NCBI GenBank assembly: GCA_038741495.1
Contig: JAVYKX010000002.1
Span: 446,541 to 510,540, forward strand
DNA length: 64,000 nucleotides
Direction of reading: 5' to 3'
From: Thermofilum sp.
GTDB taxonomy: Archaea; Thermoproteota; Thermoprotei; Thermofilales; Thermofilaceae
Part shown: piece by piece, positions 1,784 to 20,312 of the stretch
Layout: every line of letters starts with the position of its first letter
Numbering within the stretch: position 1 is the stretch's first letter
The notes under the pieces: generated by a model
Told to the model about the DNA's origin: nothing
The model's database searches: none
What the model saw: the letters and a program-made list of their open reading frames with translations, nothing else
Made by a program: the position numbers and the translations under genes

Positions 1784-2515
1784 TCATAGGCTACCTGAGC
1801 TTTTATCTCTTTCTTCGCTCTCTCGCTCCTCCTCGCCTGCGCCCCCGAGAAAGCTGTCGAGAGCACCGGTGAAGTCCGTGTCGAGAATCTCCAGGATCCT
1901 GCTAACCTTCTTAGGTCCAAGTCCGGCTTTCCGTAGCTCAGCTGGGGTGGCTTGGAAGAACTTTCTCGGTGTTCTAAAGAACGTTAGTATCTGTCTCGCG
2001 GTGGCGTAGCTGATGCCGGGAAGGGACGAGACGAGGTTAAGCTGCACATCCTGAACGCTCGCGCGCCCTTTCCTCAAAGCTCTCCTCTTAGCGGGCGGCA
2101 CGTAGCTGCTATCCTTCTCCAGCCTCCTCGAGAGGAGGTATATCAGCAGTGCTGTGCGCTGGGGGTCTGAGACCTGGAGCACTGGAACTTTCATCTCGGT
2201 TAGAGCTAGCAGCGCTCCGAGAAGCTGGTTTATCGAGACTCCGCGTGTGGCTGCCACTTCCTCGAGGTCTCCCTCTACGACAATGAGAGGTTTCTCGTAA
2301 GCTTCTCGTAGAAGCCGCGCCTGCTCGAAGAGACGCTTATCGATTATAGAGTTCGCGAAATCGTCCACCGTCTTTCTCTCAATGCCGTAGACGTTGCCGA
2401 CCACGTAGTCAGCTACTTCTAGTCTCTCTATCTGCAGCTTAAGCCCTAAGCGGATGAGCTCGGGTAGAACGGGTGCCTTGCGCTCCCGATCGTCTACCCG
2501 CACCACTGAAACCAT
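1784..2515 (-). CDS. xpf: XPF/Mus81-family structure-specific endonuclease (short archaeal form)
   Basis: The N-terminal nuclease domain (about 1-140) contains the ERK-type catalytic motif in GIERKTVDDF (residues 45-54) and VDDRERK near the start. A tandem helix-hairpin-helix domain follows (about 155-220: SSLPGISYA and KAGLGPKKV). There is no helicase domain, as in crenarchaeal XPF and unlike euryarchaeal Hef. The enzyme cuts 3' flaps and fork structures with PCNA. The tail GALDSFLGG looks like a weak PIP box, followed by an acidic, Ser-rich end. ATG at 2515 sits under an A/T-rich promoter-like patch, so this gene may start the downstream operon. Confidence 0.92.
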   Translation of the reverse strand: MVSVVRVDDRERKAPVLPELIRLGLKLQIERLEVADYVVGNVYGIERKTVDDFANSIIDKRLFEQARLLREAYEKPLIVVEGDLEEVAATRGVSINQLLGALLALTEMKVPVLQVSDPQRTALLIYLLSRRLEKDSSYVPPAKRRALRKGRASVQDVQLNLVSSLPGISYATARQILTFFRTPRKFFQATPAELRKAGLGPKKVSRILEILDTDFTGALDSFLGGAGEEERESEERDKSSGSL

Positions 2516-2561
2516 AAGACTTACCTGCCGCTAAACCTTTTTCATATTTCCCCGCCGCCCT

Positions 2562-3758
2562 TCAGCGTTCCGCGCCAGCGCTACCGGCGCTGCCGACGCC
2601 GGCAAGCACTCCTCTTAAGCCCAGCCTAGCGAGCAACCTGGGCACAGATTCCCTAGGGTCGAGAGGACCCACTGCAGCTACGTATACTCTGAGTGGGCCG
2701 TTAAACCTTAACAAGCCGGCGTCGTGGAGTTTCTGGAGAGCTTCATCTCTCTCCTCTCTCGGTATTCTCTCTCCGAGCTGCCTTGACAGGGCCTCGAAGT
2801 TTTCCTCTATCAAGGCTAGAGGTATGCTCAGCTGTCCGAGCTGCTCAACGCTTAGCAGAGCAGCAGCGAGAACTATCCTCTCCGCTCTCGTCAGGCCTCT
2901 AATCGTCTCCTCCGAGATGTAGCCGCTCCCAGTGACTTGGGCGAGCGCCTTCTCGACGTGTTTCAAGCCGACGCGCCTCGCCCCCTCGGACTCTGCGATG
3001 AAGCCGGCGTAGAGTAGCAGGTCGAGCGCTGCTCTCACGTCGCCGCCGAAGAGGTCGAGTGTAGCTCTGGCCACGTGCTCGGCCACTCCCTCCTCTAGGG
3101 CTCCGCCTCTGAAGGCCTCGGAAGCCCGGTAGGTGATGATGTCCACTAGCTGCTCGAGCGTGTAGGGTGGGTACCTGATCACCACAGAGCCTAGCGTGCT
3201 TTTCTCTTCTTCAGCCAGCCCCATGCACCACTCTGCTCTCCTCGCGATGAAAACAACAGCGGCTACGTTCTTGGCTCCGAGCTCGGGGAGGCGGGTGAGA
3301 TTGTAGACGACTCTGCCCCCCTTCAATGACTTGACTCCTGTCAGCTCGTCAGCCTCGTCTACTGTTATCACGTACCGCTTGGAGTCATCCTTCTCGAGAA
3401 GCTTAACCAGCTTGAGGAACGCTTCACCAGCACTAATGCTGCGCGATAGCCTGGCCCCCACCTGGGAGGAGATGAACGAGAATATCAGCCACGGGGAGGG
3501 CTCGCTGAGCGAGCGCAGATTCACGTAAAGGTGGCTTAGGCTTGGCGCCTCCTCTCTAAGTCTCTGCACGACGAGGAAGTCGGAGGAGGTCTTCCCCGTG
3601 CCCACGGGGCCAATTAGCTGGATTACCTGGAGGAACGTTTTCCCTACAAGAGGCTCGCGGATCAGCGAGTAGAGCCGGGATAGTTGCTCGTCCCTATGCG
3701 GAAGGCGCGAGGGAACATACCTGCTCGAGAGAGCTTGGGGGTTGATGAGTAGGCTCAC
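2562..3758 (-). CDS. cdc6: Orc1/Cdc6-type replication initiator
   Basis: An AAA+ ATPase of 398 residues. Walker A is GPVGTGKT (50-57) and Walker B lies in VITVDEADEL (about 131-140). The remainder fits the lid domain and a C-terminal winged helix (about 285-370) that binds origin DNA. The GTG at 3758 gives a natural N-terminus with the RDEQL segment that precedes the P-loop in this family. The last 15 residues are low-complexity Gly/Ala/Ser. Archaeal cdc6 genes often sit beside origins. The adjacent intergenic region is foldable but not A/T-rich, and no origin recognition box could be identified by eye. Confidence 0.93.
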   Translation of the reverse strand: MSLLINPQALSSRYVPSRLPHRDEQLSRLYSLIREPLVGKTFLQVIQLIGPVGTGKTSSDFLVVQRLREEAPSLSHLYVNLRSLSEPSPWLIFSFISSQVGARLSRSISAGEAFLKLVKLLEKDDSKRYVITVDEADELTGVKSLKGGRVVYNLTRLPELGAKNVAAVVFIARRAEWCMGLAEEEKSTLGSVVIRYPPYTLEQLVDIITYRASEAFRGGALEEGVAEHVARATLDLFGGDVRAALDLLLYAGFIAESEGARRVGLKHVEKALAQVTGSGYISEETIRGLTRAERIVLAAALLSVEQLGQLSIPLALIEENFEALSRQLGERIPREERDEALQKLHDAGLLRFNGPLRVYVAAVGPLDPRESVPRLLARLGLRGVLAGVGSAGSAGAER

Positions 3759-3842
3759 GGCTCCCTGCTCGCGACGCAGCTTGCCTAAGTATGCTTTTCT
3801 CGAAGAGTGTCATTGGCGAAAGTGATGCGAAGCATCGAGGTA

Positions 3843-13638: not shown

Positions 13639-14020
13639 ATGAAGCCGATCTACCGCTGCCGCAGGTGCGGTGTCCTCACAGAGGAGGAGTTGCACTGCAG
13701 AACTCCAGCCGAGCTAGTTCTCGAGGGGGACAGGCGGGAGAGACTGAGCAAGCTTATGAGCGGCGCGCTCAGGCACTTCCCCAAGGCGCTGGGGCTCCAC
13801 ATCGACGAGGAGGGTTTCACAGCCGTGAGCCAGCTCGCCGCCGCACTGAGGAGCGTAAAAGGCTTTGAGTGGGTGACTGAGAACCACGTGCGAGCTGTAG
13901 CTGCGATGGACCCTAAAGGGCGCTTCGAGCTAGCCGGCGAGGCGATACGAGCCCGATACGGGCACTCTCTTCGCGTCAGGATAAGGTACGCAGAGGAGTA
14001 CCCCTCCACACCACTCACCC
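13639..14020 (+). pseudogene. kptA: 5' half of kptA (tRNA 2'-phosphotransferase), split by a TnpB element
   Basis: KptA/Tpt1 removes the 2'-phosphate from spliced tRNA using NAD+. This half holds an N-terminal zinc ribbon (CRRC...HC) and the Tpt1 N-lobe, including RLSKLMSGALRHFP, DEEGFTAVSQL, DPKGRFEL and IRARYGHSLRV. It breaks off after YPSTPLTP, where the sequence becomes the left end of the element; the frame then runs a few codons to a stop at 14046. The rest of the enzyme resumes at 15698. Neither half has internal stops, so the insertion looks recent. Two independently made halves reassembling is possible but unsupported. Confidence 0.88.
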
Positions 14021-14149
14021 CGTGGCGAAGGCTGTGTACACGGTGAGCCACCCGCCCCTCAAGCGCGCCAGCACCACTCTCCCGGGGGCAACGCCCCCGC
14101 GTCCCTTGCGGCCATAAATAGGGTTTGGGCAAGTGAAGCTGGGGAGCGG
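14014..14149 (+). repeat. Left end (LE1) with terminal palindrome and tnpB promoter
   Basis: It shares about 92% of positions with LE2. CTCACC-GTG (interrupted by two bases) pairs with CACGGTGAG about 12 nt later to form the subterminal hairpin. A second stem, GGGGGC-AAC-GCCCCC, is also perfect in LE2 although all three loop bases differ. ATAAATA at 14114-14120 is a TATA box 30 bp before the tnpB ATG. Confidence 0.75.
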
Positions 14150-15667
14150 ATGGGGGCCAGCACGGCGAGGGGAGTCCCCGAGAAGAAGGCCCCCGGGGAG
14201 GGCTTCAGGGTCTTCAGGGTGGAGTTGAACAGGAGAGTGAGGGGAGAGCTCGCGAAGCTCTACCGGCGTCTCGTGAGCAGGGATCCTTCGCTGCCGAAGG
14301 GCGCCTTCTACTACCACGAGAGCTGGGAAAACGAGGATGCGAACGTGCGGGAGCTGCGGGAGCGGGCGGGGAAGCGATCCCCGCCGAAGCGCGATCCACC
14401 GTACTACCTGCGGGTCAAAATCACCAAGGACGGGAAGAGAATCCACGGCAGCAAAGGCGCCCCCGCCGTGGTCGACCTCAGCAGGGGCGAGCTGCGGATC
14501 CCCTGCGCTGGGATCCGGATCCCCCTGAAGCCCTCGCTGCTGAGGGCGCTGGAGGAGGATCTGTCCCTGGTTCCGAAGCCTGAGCTCGTCGCACAGCTGA
14601 CCTGCAGGGGCAGGCTGCGCATCGTCGCTTTCAGGAGCCCGCCGAAGTGGTGGCTCTACAGGGAGGAGTGCGCGGACCTCGCTGTCACCCGCCTCCAGCC
14701 GCCCGTCAGGGTGGTAGCAATGGACGTGAACAGCGTGTACGGCCTCACCATCGTCGTCTTCGACGTCACCGAGGGCGGCGTGAGGGTGCCGAAGTCGCCG
14801 ATGCGGTGGCAGCCGCCGAACGACACCCTATTCCTAACGATGGCGAGCGTGCTCCGGAAGATCGCCCAGGGCCTGCCGCCGGAGCCGCCTAGGGGCGCCA
14901 GCGAGGAGGAGCTCCAGCGCTGGCAGTGGGCGCTCGAGAGGGTGAGGAGGCTGGAAACGAGGGTTGGAGCGCTGACCACTGAGAGGGCTGACAGGCTCCG
15001 CTGCCAGCTGGAGCGGGCGGCGAGGATAGCGAGGAAGCGCTGGGCCCGGAAGGTGGTGCACGAGCTCAGGCAGCTCGTCCGCGAGGCGGGCGGCAGGGCA
15101 GTAATCACTATCGACGCCCCCGACCCGGAGAGCCTCAGGAACAGTAAGCTGCAGAAGACCTACCTCAGGGTCGAGAAGCTCGTCAAGAACCTCTGCGCTT
15201 ACGAGGGGGTGCTCTACCGGAGGGTGAGGGCTTCCGGCAGGGCGTGCCCCCTCTGCAACCGGTGGTGCGAGGAGGTGGGGCACCGGTACTACAAGTGCCC
15301 GAGGTGCGAGCTGGTGTTCGACCGGGACTACGGTGGAGCTTTCAACGCAGGCCTCGAAGCCCTACCGCCACTGCTCGCAGATGAGCTGAGGAAGTGGCTC
15401 AAAGCCCACCCCAAAGCGCTGGCGCCGAACTACGGCAACAAGCCCAGCCAGAGCCCCCGCTTCCCGGGACACCCGCCCGGACGTCGAGCCCGTTCGGGGG
15501 GCGCTCCCGGGGGGCCGCGCGCGCGAAGAGGGGACGTGACCCCGCCCGCAGGCGCACCGGCGACGGGCGCCGAGGGGCGGGCGAGCAGGCTGCCGACGAG
15601 GCGGCCGGCCCCCATGACCCGCCCCGGTCTCCCGCGAGGAGGCCGCAGGGCGGGCCCCAAGGCTTAA
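14150..15667 (+). CDS. tnpB: TnpB RNA-guided nuclease 1
   Basis: A 505-residue TnpB. Wedge and recognition segments occupy the first 185 residues. RuvC-I is VAMDVNS (Asp192). The RuvC-II position reads TIDAPDPES (Asp322, with Glu327 five residues on) rather than the usual Glu. A CPLC/CPRC zinc finger lies at 366-386, and RuvC-III is DRDYGGAFNA (Asp393). TnpB nucleases use an omega RNA to cut DNA next to a TAM, favouring retention of the element. The last 60 or so residues are Pro/Gly/Arg-rich and are simply the translation of the hairpin-rich right end; the second copy stops before it. Confidence 0.9.
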   Translation: MGASTARGVPEKKAPGEGFRVFRVELNRRVRGELAKLYRRLVSRDPSLPKGAFYYHESWENEDANVRELRERAGKRSPPKRDPPYYLRVKITKDGKRIHGSKGAPAVVDLSRGELRIPCAGIRIPLKPSLLRALEEDLSLVPKPELVAQLTCRGRLRIVAFRSPPKWWLYREECADLAVTRLQPPVRVVAMDVNSVYGLTIVVFDVTEGGVRVPKSPMRWQPPNDTLFLTMASVLRKIAQGLPPEPPRGASEEELQRWQWALERVRRLETRVGALTTERADRLRCQLERAARIARKRWARKVVHELRQLVREAGGRAVITIDAPDPESLRNSKLQKTYLRVEKLVKNLCAYEGVLYRRVRASGRACPLCNRWCEEVGHRYYKCPRCELVFDRDYGGAFNAGLEALPPLLADELRKWLKAHPKALAPNYGNKPSQSPRFPGHPPGRRARSGGAPGGPRARRGDVTPPAGAPATGAEGRASRLPTRRPAPMTRPGLPRGGRRAGPKA

Positions 15668-15697
15668 GCCGATGAAGGGAGATGAGCACCGGCGCGG
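15440..15697 (+). ncRNA. Probable omega (guide) RNA scaffold of TnpB element 1
   Basis: Successive hairpins line up with the other copy: GGCGC/GCGCC at 15551-15571, GGCTGCC-GACGA-GGCGGCC at 15588-15606, and a long stem CCCGCCC (15618-15624) with GGGCGGG (15648-15654) enclosing GGTCTCC/GGAGGCC. The palindrome GGCTTAAGCC follows at 15661-15670. Stem sequences differ from copy 2 in ways that keep pairing. In known systems the guide is the flank just past the right end, which here is kptA sequence from 15698. The 5' boundary is a guess. Confidence 0.55.
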
Positions 15698-15993
15698 GCC
15701 TCTTCCACGGAACCTCGAGGTCTAAGCTCGCCAGCATCCTGAAGAGAGGGCTCCTGCCGATGCGCAGACTCTTCGTCCACCTCACGGTAGCATACGAGGA
15801 TGCGCTGGCGAGGGCGCTGGCCCACCCGGACCCTGTAGTGCTCGCTGTGAACCCTGACTGCATGAAAGGAAGGGTGAAGCTCTTCCGAGCGAGCAAGACG
15901 GTCTACGTAGCTCCCTACGTGCCGAGCGACTGCATCAGCGTCGCGAGCGGGGATCGAGAGCTATCCCTGCCGGAGCGCGCCGGCGAGAGCTAA
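15698..15993 (+). pseudogene. kptA: 3' half of kptA (tRNA 2'-phosphotransferase)
   Basis: It begins with LFHGTSRSKLASIL and continues with GLLPMRRLFVHL and VYVAPYVPSDCI, the NAD-binding C-lobe of KptA/Tpt1, including the Arg of GTSR. The open frame begins at ATG 15682, which lies inside the element's right end, so the fragment could be translated as a 103-residue protein. It ends overlapping the convergent aldo/keto reductase stop. Together with 13639-14020 it makes one full-length enzyme. The host therefore either lost KptA activity or has another copy. Confidence 0.88.
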
Positions 15994-16823
15994 GCGGGAA
16001 GCCGCCTGAACTGCTCGGAGATCAGCCGCCAGTCCTCATCGCTGAGTCGCCAGCCGGCAGAGCCTATGTTCTCCTCGAGGTGCCAGATGCTTCCAGCCTT
16101 CGGTATCGGCACGACGGAGGGGAACCTCAGCAGCCAGTTGAGAGCTACCTGAGCGGCTGTCTTACGGTACTTCGCGCCGATCTGAGCCAGGAAACGGTTC
16201 TTGGCCAGCTCCCCCTCCTCTAGCGGGGAGTAGGCGATGTAGAGCATCCCCTCCCTCTCCGTGTAGGGTACAACGGTTTCCTCGTCGCCTCTATCAAGGA
16301 GGCTGAACTTGTTCTCGACAGCCGCAACATCCTCCCTGCTCAGGCAGGCCCTCGCCTCCTCGATAAGCTCTAGGCTGAAGTTGCTCACACCGATAAACCT
16401 CGCGATACCTCTCGCCACGACAGCTTCGAGAGCGCGCATGGTCTCGCAGAGAGGAGTATCCGTAGGCGGCCAGTGAATCAAGTAGAGGTCGATGTGCGTT
16501 CCGAGGCGCTTCATGCTCGCCTCAGCGCTCTTAAGCACATCGTCGTACCTCGCGTGAGTTGGCCAGACTTTCGTCACGATGAAGACCTCCTCCCTGGGAA
16601 AAGCCTTCACAGCCTCGCCCACAAGCTCCTCCGAGTGCCCCCCTCCGTACATCTCGGCAGTGTCTATCAGAGACGCCCCCAGCTCGATCCCCCTCCTCAG
16701 GATAGCGATCCACTCCTCGTCCCTGCTCCTATCAGGGCTCCAGAACCCTCCACCGATACCCCACGTCCCCATTCCGAGAGCCGGGAGGCTCATCCCGAGC
16801 TTCGGGAAGTACTTCTTTTCCAC
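15990..16823 (-). CDS. Aldo/keto reductase
   Basis: A 277-residue NADPH-dependent TIM-barrel reductase. The catalytic tetrad is visible: Asp54 and Tyr59 in DTAEMYGGG, Lys84 in VTKVWP and the His of YLIHWPP. The cofactor-binding IPKAGS motif lies near 240. Substrate cannot be predicted; relatives reduce sugars, ketoacids or aldehydes. ATG at 16823 is used. The upstream region up to 16937 is shared with the divergent thymidylate synthase-like gene. Its stop overlaps that of the kptA 3' fragment by 3 bp. Confidence 0.92.
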   Translation of the reverse strand: MEKKYFPKLGMSLPALGMGTWGIGGGFWSPDRSRDEEWIAILRRGIELGASLIDTAEMYGGGHSEELVGEAVKAFPREEVFIVTKVWPTHARYDDVLKSAEASMKRLGTHIDLYLIHWPPTDTPLCETMRALEAVVARGIARFIGVSNFSLELIEEARACLSREDVAAVENKFSLLDRGDEETVVPYTEREGMLYIAYSPLEEGELAKNRFLAQIGAKYRKTAAQVALNWLLRFPSVVPIPKAGSIWHLEENIGSAGWRLSDEDWRLISEQFRRLPA

Positions 16824-16937
16824 AAGCCTCGGCTATGCCAGCCGGATAAATATCTGCTTTCCTTCGTAGTACGAAGGTAGTTTCGCCGAACTTGCACGCA
16901 TTCATAAAAACGCGCGCTCGCGCGGTGAAGAGCAGGG

Positions 16938-18329
16938 ATGCGCAAAGACGTCGCCTTCATCAACCCCGAGTCCAACGTCGCCGTGGTTACTCTTTGGACT
17001 AAGAAGGAGGTGGTCCTGGAGAAGCTTCGCGAGCTCGGCGTGGAGGAGCGTGTTCACGCGGTAGGCACGCTGTACACCGCCTACGGGGTGAACTACCTCC
17101 TGCACTCGCTAGCGCGCAACCCGAGGATCGACACGCTAGTTGTTTTCGGGGCAGACCTCTCGGATAGCGGTGACGCTCTAGTGGGCCTCTTCCAGGGGAG
17201 GCCCCCGCCCTCCCTGAAGCTCATGTGGCCTCTCGAGGTGCTGAAACCTCTCCTGGAAGCGGTTCGCGTGGTGGACCTCAGGGAAGCTTTCAAGCGCGGT
17301 GACTGGGCTGCACTGCGCGAGGCCGTGCTCGAGAGCTATAAGCCGGGCGCCTCCAGGCATGTGCTCGGCCTGGAGCTTGAGGAAGTTAAAGTGGATTCTT
17401 GGCCTCTGCAGGCGGCCGGGGCTTACGTCGTGGAGAGCGACCTGCTGAGGGCCTGGGTGAAGCTCCTCGACTCGGTAATGCGATGGGGCCGGGTCAAACC
17501 GTCCGAGTACGGTGAGAGGCAGAAGCAGCTGCTGGGCGCCCTGGCCGTCCTCAGGGCTGAGGAGGCGCTGCGCAGCGCCGTGAGGCTTCAAGCCTACATA
17601 CCTGCTGAGGAGCTGGAGAAGCATGCGCGCAGCCTGCTGGAGGGGGCTCGCGGCGCATCGTACTCCTACGGGGATAGGCTGAGGGCGCACAGGGAGGCTG
17701 GCGACCAGCTGTCCACTTTCATCGCGAAGCTTTCCTCGAGCCCGGCCACCCGCCGCGCAGTGATGCTGACATGGGATTTCGCAGCCGACCCGGCCTCTCC
17801 CGACCCCCCGTGCCTGCTGCTCGTCCAGGGGGATCTCACAGACCGCGTGTACAGCCAGGTTGCGTACTTCAGGAGCCATGACGCGTTTGGCGCTTGGCCG
17901 CTGAACGCCTACGCTCTCCTGCGGCTAATGGAGGAAGTGAAGATGAAGCTAGAGTCGGAAACCGGTGAGAGCATCCGGCTGGGGAACTTGCTGATTTTCA
18001 GCGCCAGCTTGCACGTCTATGAGCACGACTGGCCGAGGGCTAGGGATCTGCTCGAGAAGAACCTCGAGGCAGCGCTCCACGCTTTCGTCAGAGACGATAA
18101 GGGCGACTTCCTCGTGAGGGTGGAGGGCGGCGAGATAGTACTCGAGCTCAGAGATCCTAGTGGAGCTCTCGCCTTCTCCGCGAGAGGATGCAGCGCGAGG
18201 GATGTGCTGAAAAAGATCAACCTAACCCCCTTGATGCCCAGCCACGCAGCCTACCTCGGACGCGAGTTGGCGAGAGCCGAGCACGCTCTGAAGCATGGGC
18301 TCGCGTACACTCAGGACGACTCAGGATAA
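16938..18329 (+). CDS. MtrA-like domain fused to an archaeal thymidylate synthase domain
   Basis: A 463-residue fusion. Residues 10-90 (VAVVTLWT, VGTLYTAYG, NPRIDTLVVFGADLS) resemble DUF4346 and the MtrA subunit of methyl-H4MPT:CoM methyltransferase. Residues 270-400 carry the ThyA core: catalytic Cys292 in DPPC, the phosphate-binding RSHD (312-315), Asn323 in WPLN, and HVYEHDW (His359, Tyr361), matching Cys146, Arg166, Asn177, His207 and Tyr209 of E. coli ThyA. It should make dTMP from dUMP; the MtrA-like domain suggests a tetrahydromethanopterin-type C1 carrier, which is inference. It is flanked by TnpB elements. Confidence 0.83.
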   Translation: MRKDVAFINPESNVAVVTLWTKKEVVLEKLRELGVEERVHAVGTLYTAYGVNYLLHSLARNPRIDTLVVFGADLSDSGDALVGLFQGRPPPSLKLMWPLEVLKPLLEAVRVVDLREAFKRGDWAALREAVLESYKPGASRHVLGLELEEVKVDSWPLQAAGAYVVESDLLRAWVKLLDSVMRWGRVKPSEYGERQKQLLGALAVLRAEEALRSAVRLQAYIPAEELEKHARSLLEGARGASYSYGDRLRAHREAGDQLSTFIAKLSSSPATRRAVMLTWDFAADPASPDPPCLLLVQGDLTDRVYSQVAYFRSHDAFGAWPLNAYALLRLMEEVKMKLESETGESIRLGNLLIFSASLHVYEHDWPRARDLLEKNLEAALHAFVRDDKGDFLVRVEGGEIVLELRDPSGALAFSARGCSARDVLKKINLTPLMPSHAAYLGRELARAEHALKHGLAYTQDDSG

Positions 18330-18356
18330 GGTCACACTATACGTCTCTAGACATCT

Positions 18357-18478
18357 CCTGATCCTGCCCCCTATAGGGAAACGTGGAGGGGGCGGGTATG
18401 CGGGTTCGCGGCAGGGAACAGGCGGCTGCAACCCGGAGAGCGTGGAGTGAAAACCTCCGCGCGGAGTGGGCAGCATCT
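18357..18478. other. Foldable intergenic segment without a gene
   Basis: GATCCTGCCC near 18357-18367 can pair, with one mismatch, with GGGCAGCATC near 18468-18477, closing a segment of about 120 nt. Inside are GTGGAG/CTCCGC and the palindrome CTCCGCGCGGAG. It resembles a structured RNA in size but matches no family I can name; it may also be debris around the truncated gene that follows. Confidence 0.25.
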
Positions 18479-18600
18479 AGGGGGTGAGCGCCCCCTCGAG
18501 GGCCTTGTTGAGCTCCTCGTCGAAGCTCAACCCCTCCCGCCTCGCCCCCAGCTCCCTCATGCCCTTGCTGCTTGCGAGCTCCTCCATCAGCCTCACCCTG
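18477..18600 (-). pseudogene. 3' fragment of an unidentified gene truncated by TnpB element 2
   Basis: The minus strand reads about 40 codons without interruption into a TAG at 18477, ending LSFDEELNKALEGALTP. Codon use looks native (C/G third positions). Its upstream (5') part is replaced abruptly by the left end of TnpB element 2, and no continuation appears beyond the right end, where sufS ends at once. The fragment is amphipathic and Glu/Arg-rich, perhaps the tail of a small DNA-binding or antitoxin-like protein; no family is claimed. Confidence 0.5.
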
Positions 18601-18727
18601 TGGCGAAGGCTGTGTACACGGTGAGCCACCCGCCCCTCAAGCGCGCCAGCACCATTCTCCCGGGGGCGCTGCCCCCGCGTCCCTTGCGGTCATAAATAGA
18701 GCTCGGGCAAGTGGAGCTGGGGGGCGG
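18592..18727 (+). repeat. Left end (LE2) with terminal palindrome and tnpB promoter
   Basis: Nearly identical to LE1, with about ten differences by hand count. The terminal stem CTCACC...GGTGAG and the stem GGGGGC-GCT-GCCCCC are kept, and ATAAATA at 18692-18698 lies 30 bp before the ATG. Immediately upstream of CTCACC the two copies differ for five bases, which places the boundary. Confidence 0.75.
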
Positions 18728-20056
18728 ATGGAGGTCAGCGTGGTGAAGGGAACCTCCGGGAAGAGCGAGGCCCCGGGGTTCGAGGGCTACCGAGTCTTCC
18801 GCATCGAGGTCAATGCCGCGCTCCGGCAGCGCTTGAAGGAGCTCTACGGCGAGGTCGTCAGGGCCTTGCAGGGTGCGGGAGGTGTCCCGAAGGGGCTGCT
18901 CTACTACGGGGAGGAGTGGGTGAGGGCACGCCTCGCCGCAGTGCTCAACCGCTTCAAGGCGGGGAAGCGCACGCCGCCGGAGAAGCTCCCGCCCATACCC
19001 CTGCTGGTTCGGTTCCGGTGGGGTGGGCGGGAGTACGGTGCAGGGGGTGCAGTCTGCGTCATCGACCTCGGCGCCTGCATCCTGAGAGTCTGGAACATCA
19101 TTGTTCCGCTGCCTCCAAAGCTGTGCAAGATGCTGGAGGGGGAGCTGGAGCTGAGCCCGCCTCCAAAGTTCACGCTGTTCCTCTGCCAGGACGGGGAGCT
19201 CAGGCTGGTGGCGTGCCGCAGCCCGCCGAAGTGGTGGGTGGCGGTGCGGGAGGAGTGCGACGACTACACCGACTTCTACTTCCCGCGGCCCTTCGCGGCT
19301 GTGGGGGTGGACGTGAACAGTAGGAACGGCATTACGGTGCTAGCCTTTGAGGTCGGCGAAAGCGGAGTGAAGAGAATCCTTAGGAGGAGGATCAAGTTCC
19401 CGAAGAAGGGGTGGAGGCTGGTGAAGATCTTGCAGCGCTACAGCAGCCTCGCCGCCAACGTGCGCAAGGGGCGCCAGTCGGCGCAGACCTATGCTCGACT
19501 ACGCGAGGCTTACGAGAAGCTCCGGGAGGAGTTCCCGGAGCTGCCGCCCACCCCGAGCAGCGCCGAAAAAGTCGTGCGCGTAATCCACCGGGCTCACAGG
19601 GCCCGAGTCATGAGGAAAGAACGCAAGCTGTCCGAGCTTGTGAGGAGGCTTGCCAGGGCTTACGGGGGAAGGGTTGCGGTCTTCGTGGACAAGCCCTCCC
19701 CCGAGAGCCTGAAGGGGAAGCCATGGCAGCAGAGCCTGCTGCGCGTTGCGAGGAGGATGCGAACGACGGTGCGCTACGAGGGAGGTTACTACAGGGAGGT
19801 GAGGGTTTCGGGGAAGCGCTGCCCTCTCTGCGGGGAGCGGGGCGTTCCCTACTCCCCTGAGGGGGAGGAGAGGAGGGCGAGCTACTTCTACTGCCAGGGC
19901 TGCAGGATCGCCTGGAACCGGGACTACGCTTCATCATTCACCGCCGTCGTCGAGGCGCTGCCATGGCTCGCCGAGGAGCTCCGGGAGTGGCTGCGCAGCC
20001 ACCCTACGGATCTCCTCGGCTCAGCGACGCTTACGCCGCCAACCCCCGGGGCCTAG
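18728..20056 (+). CDS. tnpB: TnpB RNA-guided nuclease 2
   Basis: 442 residues from ATG 18728, which occupies the same place after the left end as in copy 1; a longer open frame upstream is only the translated left end. RuvC-I is VGVDVNS (Asp195), the RuvC-II position VDKPSPES (Asp321, Glu326), the zinc finger CPLC...CQGC (365-392) and RuvC-III NRDYASSF (Asp399). The zinc loop is longer than in copy 1, with a Glu-rich insert. It is clearly homologous to copy 1 (shared RSPPKWW, DVNS, SPESL and RVSGKRCPLC-type blocks), but most positions differ, in contrast to the near-identical element ends. Confidence 0.9.
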   Translation: MEVSVVKGTSGKSEAPGFEGYRVFRIEVNAALRQRLKELYGEVVRALQGAGGVPKGLLYYGEEWVRARLAAVLNRFKAGKRTPPEKLPPIPLLVRFRWGGREYGAGGAVCVIDLGACILRVWNIIVPLPPKLCKMLEGELELSPPPKFTLFLCQDGELRLVACRSPPKWWVAVREECDDYTDFYFPRPFAAVGVDVNSRNGITVLAFEVGESGVKRILRRRIKFPKKGWRLVKILQRYSSLAANVRKGRQSAQTYARLREAYEKLREEFPELPPTPSSAEKVVRVIHRAHRARVMRKERKLSELVRRLARAYGGRVAVFVDKPSPESLKGKPWQQSLLRVARRMRTTVRYEGGYYREVRVSGKRCPLCGERGVPYSPEGEERRASYFYCQGCRIAWNRDYASSFTAVVEALPWLAEELREWLRSHPTDLLGSATLTPPTPGA

Positions 20057-20300
20057 GCCCCCGGGGAGAGCCCCGTTCCCGGGACGCGGCCGGGCTCTGC
20101 GCTCGGCCAAGTGCCCGGGTGCTCCGCGCGCGACCGAGGGGGAGAGCAGCCGGGAGGCGCTCCGGCGACGGGGCGCTGAAAGGCGTGAGCAGGCCGCCAC
20201 GAGCGGCCGCCCCCATGACGCCCGCCCCGGTCTCCCGCGAGGAGGCCGAGGGGCGGGCCCCAAGGCCTAAGCCGATGAAGGGGGATGACCCGGCGCGGAA
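20057..20300 (+). ncRNA. Probable omega (guide) RNA scaffold of TnpB element 2
   Basis: It starts at or just before the tnpB stop. Hairpins are GGCCGC-CACGA-GCGGCC (20192-20208), a 9 bp stem GCCCGCCCC (20222-20230) with GGGGCGGGC (20252-20260) enclosing GGTCTCC/GGAGGCC, and the near-palindrome GGCCTAAGCC (20266-20275). A further hairpin centres near 20167. The same order occurs in copy 1 with compensating changes. The expected guide would be the flank from 20301, which overlaps the end of sufS. Confidence 0.55.
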
Positions 20301-20312
20301 ACAGGACGAGGT

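What the first reader, a model, noticed from the sequence alone, without database searches (positions are those of the whole stretch)
14014..20300. Two TnpB elements with near-identical ends but strongly diverged nucleases
The left ends match at roughly 120 of 130 positions (hand count) and the last 80 bp of the right ends are about as similar. The TnpB proteins share only scattered blocks; I estimate well under half of residues identical. Ends and gene thus have different histories. Either both elements use the same trans-acting TnpA and have had their ends homogenised, or tnpB cassettes have been exchanged between conserved ends. Both would be informative about how TnpB guides and nucleases co-evolve.
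Basis: partly seen in the sequence, partly recalled or inferred. Interest (0 to 1): 0.85.

Follow-up and report, generated by a model that had tools for sequence, protein, structure and literature searches.

The report
Mosaic TnpB elements sharing swapped ends
Two jumping-gene relics that carry very different RNA-guided nuclease genes have nearly the same ends because they belong to a large family whose copies appear to keep exchanging end segments, so ends, nuclease genes and two other passenger genes have been reshuffled in a genome with no recognisable transposase.

Summary
LE identity is 92% over 136 bp, tnpB is about 55% nt and 40% aa, and the last ~97 bp of RE is 90%. E1 (win 14015-15700) splits the genome's only KptA/Tpt1 gene; E2 is win 18593-20301.

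They are two of at least seven tnpB-bearing and about ten tnpB-less copies. The same LE precedes tnpB type I (E1,E3-E5), type II (E2,E6) and an unrelated canonical TnpB (E7). The same ends also flank an antisense ORF "A", whose last ~20 codons are the LE itself, or remnants of ORF "B".

Alternative LE states occur across cargo classes, including a 2-nt deletion found with all three tnpB types. E1 RE resembles E2 RE (85%) more than the REs of E1's own tnpB type in E4/E5 (78/72%). In two congeners LE and tnpB distances are nearly uncorrelated (e.g. LE 99%, tnpB 73%). Constraint alone does not predict this; exchange between copies does.

No Y1 or serine TnpA was found in this genome. Shuffling between IS605 copies and mobilisation in trans are already described (Halanaerobium). 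New here are the span of cargos under one set of ends, and an unknown ORF in the slot where IS605 carries tnpA.

The parts
14015..15700 (+). element E1 (TCACCCC...GGCGCGGGCC); left boundary uncertain between about 14004 and 14016
   Evidence: KptA frame restored across it; RE end consensus; LE and RE matches
14015..14076 (+). E1 LE-a: antisense copy of the last ~20 codons of ORF A; carries the E1/E2-specific tract (sites 14039-14070)
14077..14149 (+). E1 LE-b: tnpB leader with GC-rich palindrome and TATA-like CATAAATA, shared by E1-E7
   Evidence: promoter reading is inference from the sequence
14150..15667 (+). E1 tnpB type I (505-aa frame; the TnpB-like part ends near 15424, the rest runs through the right end)
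   Evidence: PF07282 match; alignment with E2-E6
15526..15700 (+). E1 RE, presumed omega-RNA scaffold
   Evidence: alignment of 17 RE copies; consensus fold
13639..14014 (+). KptA/Tpt1 gene, 5' part, interrupted by E1
   Evidence: PF01885 positions 2-87; homologues
15701..15993 (+). KptA/Tpt1 gene, 3' part
   Evidence: PF01885 positions 103-175
18593..20301 (+). element E2 (TCACCCT...GGCGCGGAAA)
18593..18727 (+). E2 LE
   Evidence: 92% to E1
18728..20056 (+). E2 tnpB type II (442 aa)
   Evidence: 40% aa to E1; E2 model matches Cas12f and TnpB structures
20127..20301 (+). E2 RE, presumed omega-RNA scaffold
18369..18592 (-). left flank of E2 shared with E7 (88% over 223 bp), contains the start of ORF B

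Best explanation
E1 and E2 are two mosaic copies of one IS200/IS605-like (TnpB/omega-RNA type) element family with at least 7 tnpB-bearing and about 10 tnpB-less copies in this genome. The copies exchange segments by homologous recombination or gene conversion. LE and RE are common to all cargo classes, so they recombine freely and stay similar; tnpB types I and II (about 55% nt identity) are too diverged to recombine and go on diverging. Occasionally the whole inside is swapped, giving E7 (an unrelated canonical TnpB behind the same LE) or elements with antisense ORF A or remnants of ORF B between the same ends. Mobility needed a transposase that is now absent or unrecognised. Shown: shared ends, cargo diversity, cross-cutting end states, KptA interruption, no Y1 or serine TnpA found. 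Inferred: recombination as the agent, past mobilisation in trans, omega-RNA function of RE.
For: LE states cross-cut cargo classes: TACAC in E1 (I), E2 (II), N1 (A); TAGAG in E3-E5 (I), E6 (II), E7 (III), N13 (A). A 2-nt LE deletion separates E3-E7 from E1 and E2 and so splits types I and II. Sites joining E1 with E2 are clustered at 14039-14070; all sites from 14077 on join E1 with E3-E5. E1 RE is 85% to E2 but 78% and 72% to E4 and E5, whose tnpB is 84% to E1. E2 and E7 share left flank, LE and 15 nt of ORF, then unrelated nucleases. In G001/G006 LE-tnpB distance correlation is -0.03 to 0.17, with one pair at LE 99% and tnpB 73%.
Against: Ends carry functions (promoter, presumed omega-RNA and transposase sites), so part of the conservation may be selection. 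Few informative sites lie in LE-a, and the tract's left limit rests on a single site (14021). A star-like history would also lower the correlations. No strain series is at hand to watch exchange happen.
Confidence: 0.75

Rival explanations
1. Pure constraint: the ends evolve slowly because one TnpA acting in trans and the promoter and omega-RNA functions fix them, while tnpB diverges vertically; no exchange.
For: All seven LE-b segments are 75-97% identical, and the RE scaffold has many invariant columns.
Against: Does not predict end states that cross-cut tnpB types or an unrelated TnpB behind the same LE and flank. No Y1 or serine TnpA found in the genome. In G001/G006 ends are not more conserved than tnpB.
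Confidence: 0.15
2. Site-specific insertion: tnpB elements repeatedly inserted into the 3' end of a repeated host gene A-B, so the shared 'LE' is really target sequence.
For: LE-a encodes the last ~20 codons of A in antisense, and most copies also have ORF B to the left.
Against: E1 has the A-tail inside KptA, so it moved with the element. The rest of A is not found right of the RE in any copy. N1 and a locus of another genus have the RE just upstream of A.
Confidence: 0.05
3. Recent local gene conversion of the LE between the neighbours E1 and E2 explains the whole observation.
For: Five clustered E1/E2-specific sites at 14039-14070; the elements are direct repeats 4.6 kb apart.
Against: LE-b and RE similarity is family-wide, including copies on other contigs, so a local event covers only part of LE-a.
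Confidence: 0.05

Closest known systems
IS200/IS605 elements of Halanaerobium hydrogeniformans (PMC7290912)
   Same: Conserved ends, tnpB types that do not form clades, recombination between copies inferred, decayed and ends-only copies, transposition in trans proposed.
   Different: There a tnpA is present and the tnpB copies are one lineage differing by inserts; here tnpBs are 40% identical or unrelated, two further ORFs share the ends, and no TnpA was found.
PATE/MITE-like and passenger-carrying derivatives of IS elements (from own knowledge; PATE-like element also in PMC7290912)
   Same: Copies with ends but no transposase (N1, N2, N4, N9).
   Different: Here the tnpB-bearing copies themselves lack a transposase, and ORF A coding overlaps the LE.
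TnpB RNA-guided nucleases with omega-RNA from the right end (PMC8612924)
   Same: RuvC-like fold match, zinc-finger cysteines, ORF running into a structured right end.
   Different: Weak match to curated TnpB models (17.5 bits against a cut-off of 100); Asp at the position aligned with the RuvC-II Glu; activity untested.

Membership tests
IS200/IS605 family (tnpB-bearing) | TnpB protein with RuvC nuclease and zinc finger | tested here: met
   PF07282 for six of seven copies over the cut-off, E2 below it; E2 model matches Cas12f and TnpB structures, E about 1e-7 to 1e-5; RuvC-I and -III Asp conserved
IS200/IS605 family (tnpB-bearing) | Y1 (HUH) TnpA in the element or in the genome | tested here: not met
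   no PF01797 match in the genome; one in congener G005 only
IS200/IS605 family (tnpB-bearing) | insertion without target duplication next to a short motif (TAM) | tested here: inconclusive
   the KptA join needs no duplication, but the boundary is ambiguous and the TAM could not be fixed
IS200/IS605 family (tnpB-bearing) | subterminal hairpins in LE and RE | tested here: inconclusive
   LE folds no better than shuffles (z 0.15 and 0.35); E2 RE z -2.35, E1 RE z 0.01
IS200/IS605 family (tnpB-bearing) | omega-RNA made from RE with the guide taken from the flank | not testable with these tools
   the RE consensus fold has many invariant pairs and only one pair with changes on both sides; no RNA data
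IS607 family | serine recombinase TnpA | tested here: not met
   no PF00239 match in the genome
sliding clamp (PCNA) for ORF A | profile similarity to PCNA | tested here: not met

The most novel reading that the evidence does not exclude
ORF A (204 aa, no known family) is an unrecognised mobility protein that takes the place of TnpA: it lies where IS605 carries tnpA (antisense, 3' end inside LE), A plus RE without tnpB recurs in a second genus, and the tnpB copies are its non-autonomous partners.
Probability: 0.07. Interest if true: 0.8.

Novelty: new variant of a known kind. Interest (0 to 1): 0.5.

Why it matters
The family is a natural experiment on modularity. Nearly the same right end, presumably the guide-RNA scaffold, sits behind nucleases that are only 40% identical, so one can ask directly whether diverged TnpBs still accept one scaffold. 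It also shows that trees of TnpB proteins need not be trees of TnpB elements, and it raises the question of how such elements multiplied in genomes with no recognisable TnpA.

Tried and rejected
ORF A as a sliding clamp: the motif resemblance was from memory; the profile comparison gave no support. No relatives of E2 tnpB, the A1 profile or ORF A in the collections scanned (genome contigs; viral contigs). No Rfam family at the elements. Distant homologues of A or B by Pfam, NCBIfam, PHROGs or PDB: none convincing. 'Ends more conserved than tnpB' as a rule of the genus: not so in G001/G006. Coding signal for A from N1 versus N13: substitutions 5/9/11 at codon positions 1/2/3, too even to show current purifying selection. 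The RE distances printed used a fixed offset and are unreliable; re-anchored them on the RE tip. ORF A could not be folded under the structure tool's stated limits and was not submitted.

Full report
**Observation.** E1 and E2 have the reported anatomy. LE identity is 92% over 136 bp, the last ~97 bp of RE is 90%, and tnpB is around 55% nt in a global alignment and 39-40% aa. Similarity on the left runs a little way into the ORF.

**Boundaries.** E1 lies inside a KptA/Tpt1 gene: the N part matches PF01885 positions 2-87 and the C part positions 103-175. These two pieces are the only KptA matches in the genome. Homologues read ...EYPAQPLYHGTS. All RE copies share the end GGCGCGG, in nearly all followed by RAC or a close variant (N10 has GGCACGG). 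The join ...ACACCAC|TCTTCCAC restores ...STPLFHGT, which gives E1 = 14015-15700 and, by the same rule, E2 = 18593-20301. One puzzle remains: CTCCAC-N5-TCACC occurs with the same spacing left of the LE in E1, in N2 and, as CTCCAY, in most copies flanked by ORF B. So the LE may reach about 11 nt further left, or the target may carry a motif.

**The family.** In this 1.6 Mb genome, 12 LE copies by search, and 13 LE and 20 RE copies by profile in the regions fetched, were found; counts are lower bounds. Seven copies carry tnpB. Type I: E1, E3 (C3:2181), E4 (C1:471907), E5 (C2:148370), about 84% nt to E1 along the element. Type II: E2 and E6 (C4, minus strand), 66% nt over most of the element. Type III: E7 (C2:327821), a canonical 403-aa TnpB with no nucleotide similarity to the others beyond LE. 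tnpB-less copies include N1 (C1:398690-397717), which holds antisense ORF A between LE and RE; N2 and N4 with A-tail, the end of ORF B and RE; N7 and N8 with B fused to RE; and N9, a ~130-bp LE-RE miniature. ORF A's last ~20 codons are the LE itself. A homologue of A (about 35% identity, frameshifted) with RE just upstream exists in G012, another genus.

**Exchange.** (i) LE states cross-cut cargo: TACAC in E1 (I), E2 (II), N1 (A), N9, N14, N15; TAGAG in E3-E5 (I), E6 (II), E7 (III), N13 (A), N2. (ii) A 2-nt deletion in LE-a is present in E3-E7 and absent in E1 and E2, so it splits both type I and type II. (iii) The five sites joining E1 with E2 against E3-E5 lie together at 14039-14070; every site from 14077 on joins E1 with E3-E5. 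If 5 of the 38 listed sites were placed at random, the chance that they are contiguous is 34/501942, about 7e-5 (own arithmetic). The left limit of the tract rests on one site within the element. (iv) E1 RE is 85% to E2 but 78% and 72% to E4 and E5, which carry E1's tnpB type. (v) E2 and E7 share 223 bp of left flank at 88%, the LE and the first 15 nt of the ORF, then unrelated nucleases.

**Congeners.** Related tnpBs occur in G001 (13 matches), G006 (20), G014 (13), G004 and G012, though none of the congeners has this LE. In 21 copies of G001/G006, LE distance is almost unrelated to tnpB distance (rho -0.03 to 0.17), and quarters of tnpB relate only weakly to each other (0 to 0.28). One pair has LE 99% and tnpB 73%. 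This points to widespread exchange along the whole element, although a star-like history would also lower these values. There, ends are not more conserved than tnpB. The pattern at E1/E2 therefore needs two ingredients: exchange, and tnpB types too diverged to take part in it.

**Mobility.** No Y1 TnpA and no serine recombinase was found in this genome. G001 and G006 also gave neither. Whatever moved these elements is lost, too diverged to detect, supplied from outside, or is one of the unknown ORFs. ORF A occupies the slot that tnpA has in IS605 (antisense, 3' end at LE; PMC7290912), but it has no detectable relatives of known function and its two better copies show no clear purifying selection.

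**Nuclease.** The E2 model (pLDDT 64, so modest) matches Cas12f and TnpB structures. RuvC-I and RuvC-III Asp are conserved in nearly all relatives, and the residue aligned with the RuvC-II Glu is Asp in all 29 relatives. Whether it is catalytic is unknown; the sequence alignment with canonical TnpB is uncertain at that place.

**Known or new.** Recombination between IS605 copies with conserved ends is published for Halanaerobium. New here are how different the cargos under one set of ends are, the absence of a recognisable TnpA, and ORF A overlapping the LE. I rate this a new variant of a known kind.

Noticed in passing
window 13639-15993: E1 disrupts the only KptA/Tpt1 (RNA 2'-phosphotransferase) gene found in this genome; four of the five near-complete congeners gave no match and G002 has one.
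   Followed up: partly
window 15110-15150 and 19685-19715: In TnpB types I/II and all 29 relatives the residue at the RuvC-II position is Asp in place of the usual Glu.
   Followed up: partly
L059 (G000:C3:1-11000), 1897-3767: An RE copy on the minus strand (1897-1985) has the same downstream flank as E3's RE, so E3 lies in an inverted duplication near a contig end.
   Followed up: no
L067 (G000:C2), just after 329032: E7 has GGCGCGGAAC (the RE tip of the other copies) right after its stop codon but otherwise a different downstream sequence.
   Followed up: no
L056 (G000:C2:80840-81540): N2 is flanked by a near-repeat (CTCATGAGCGAT about 60 nt to the left, ATCATGAGCGAT at the right end), unusual for elements thought to make no target duplication.
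   Followed up: no
window 16938-18329: The gene between E1 and E2 matches thymidylate synthase and the DUF4346 pterin-binding domain.
   Followed up: no
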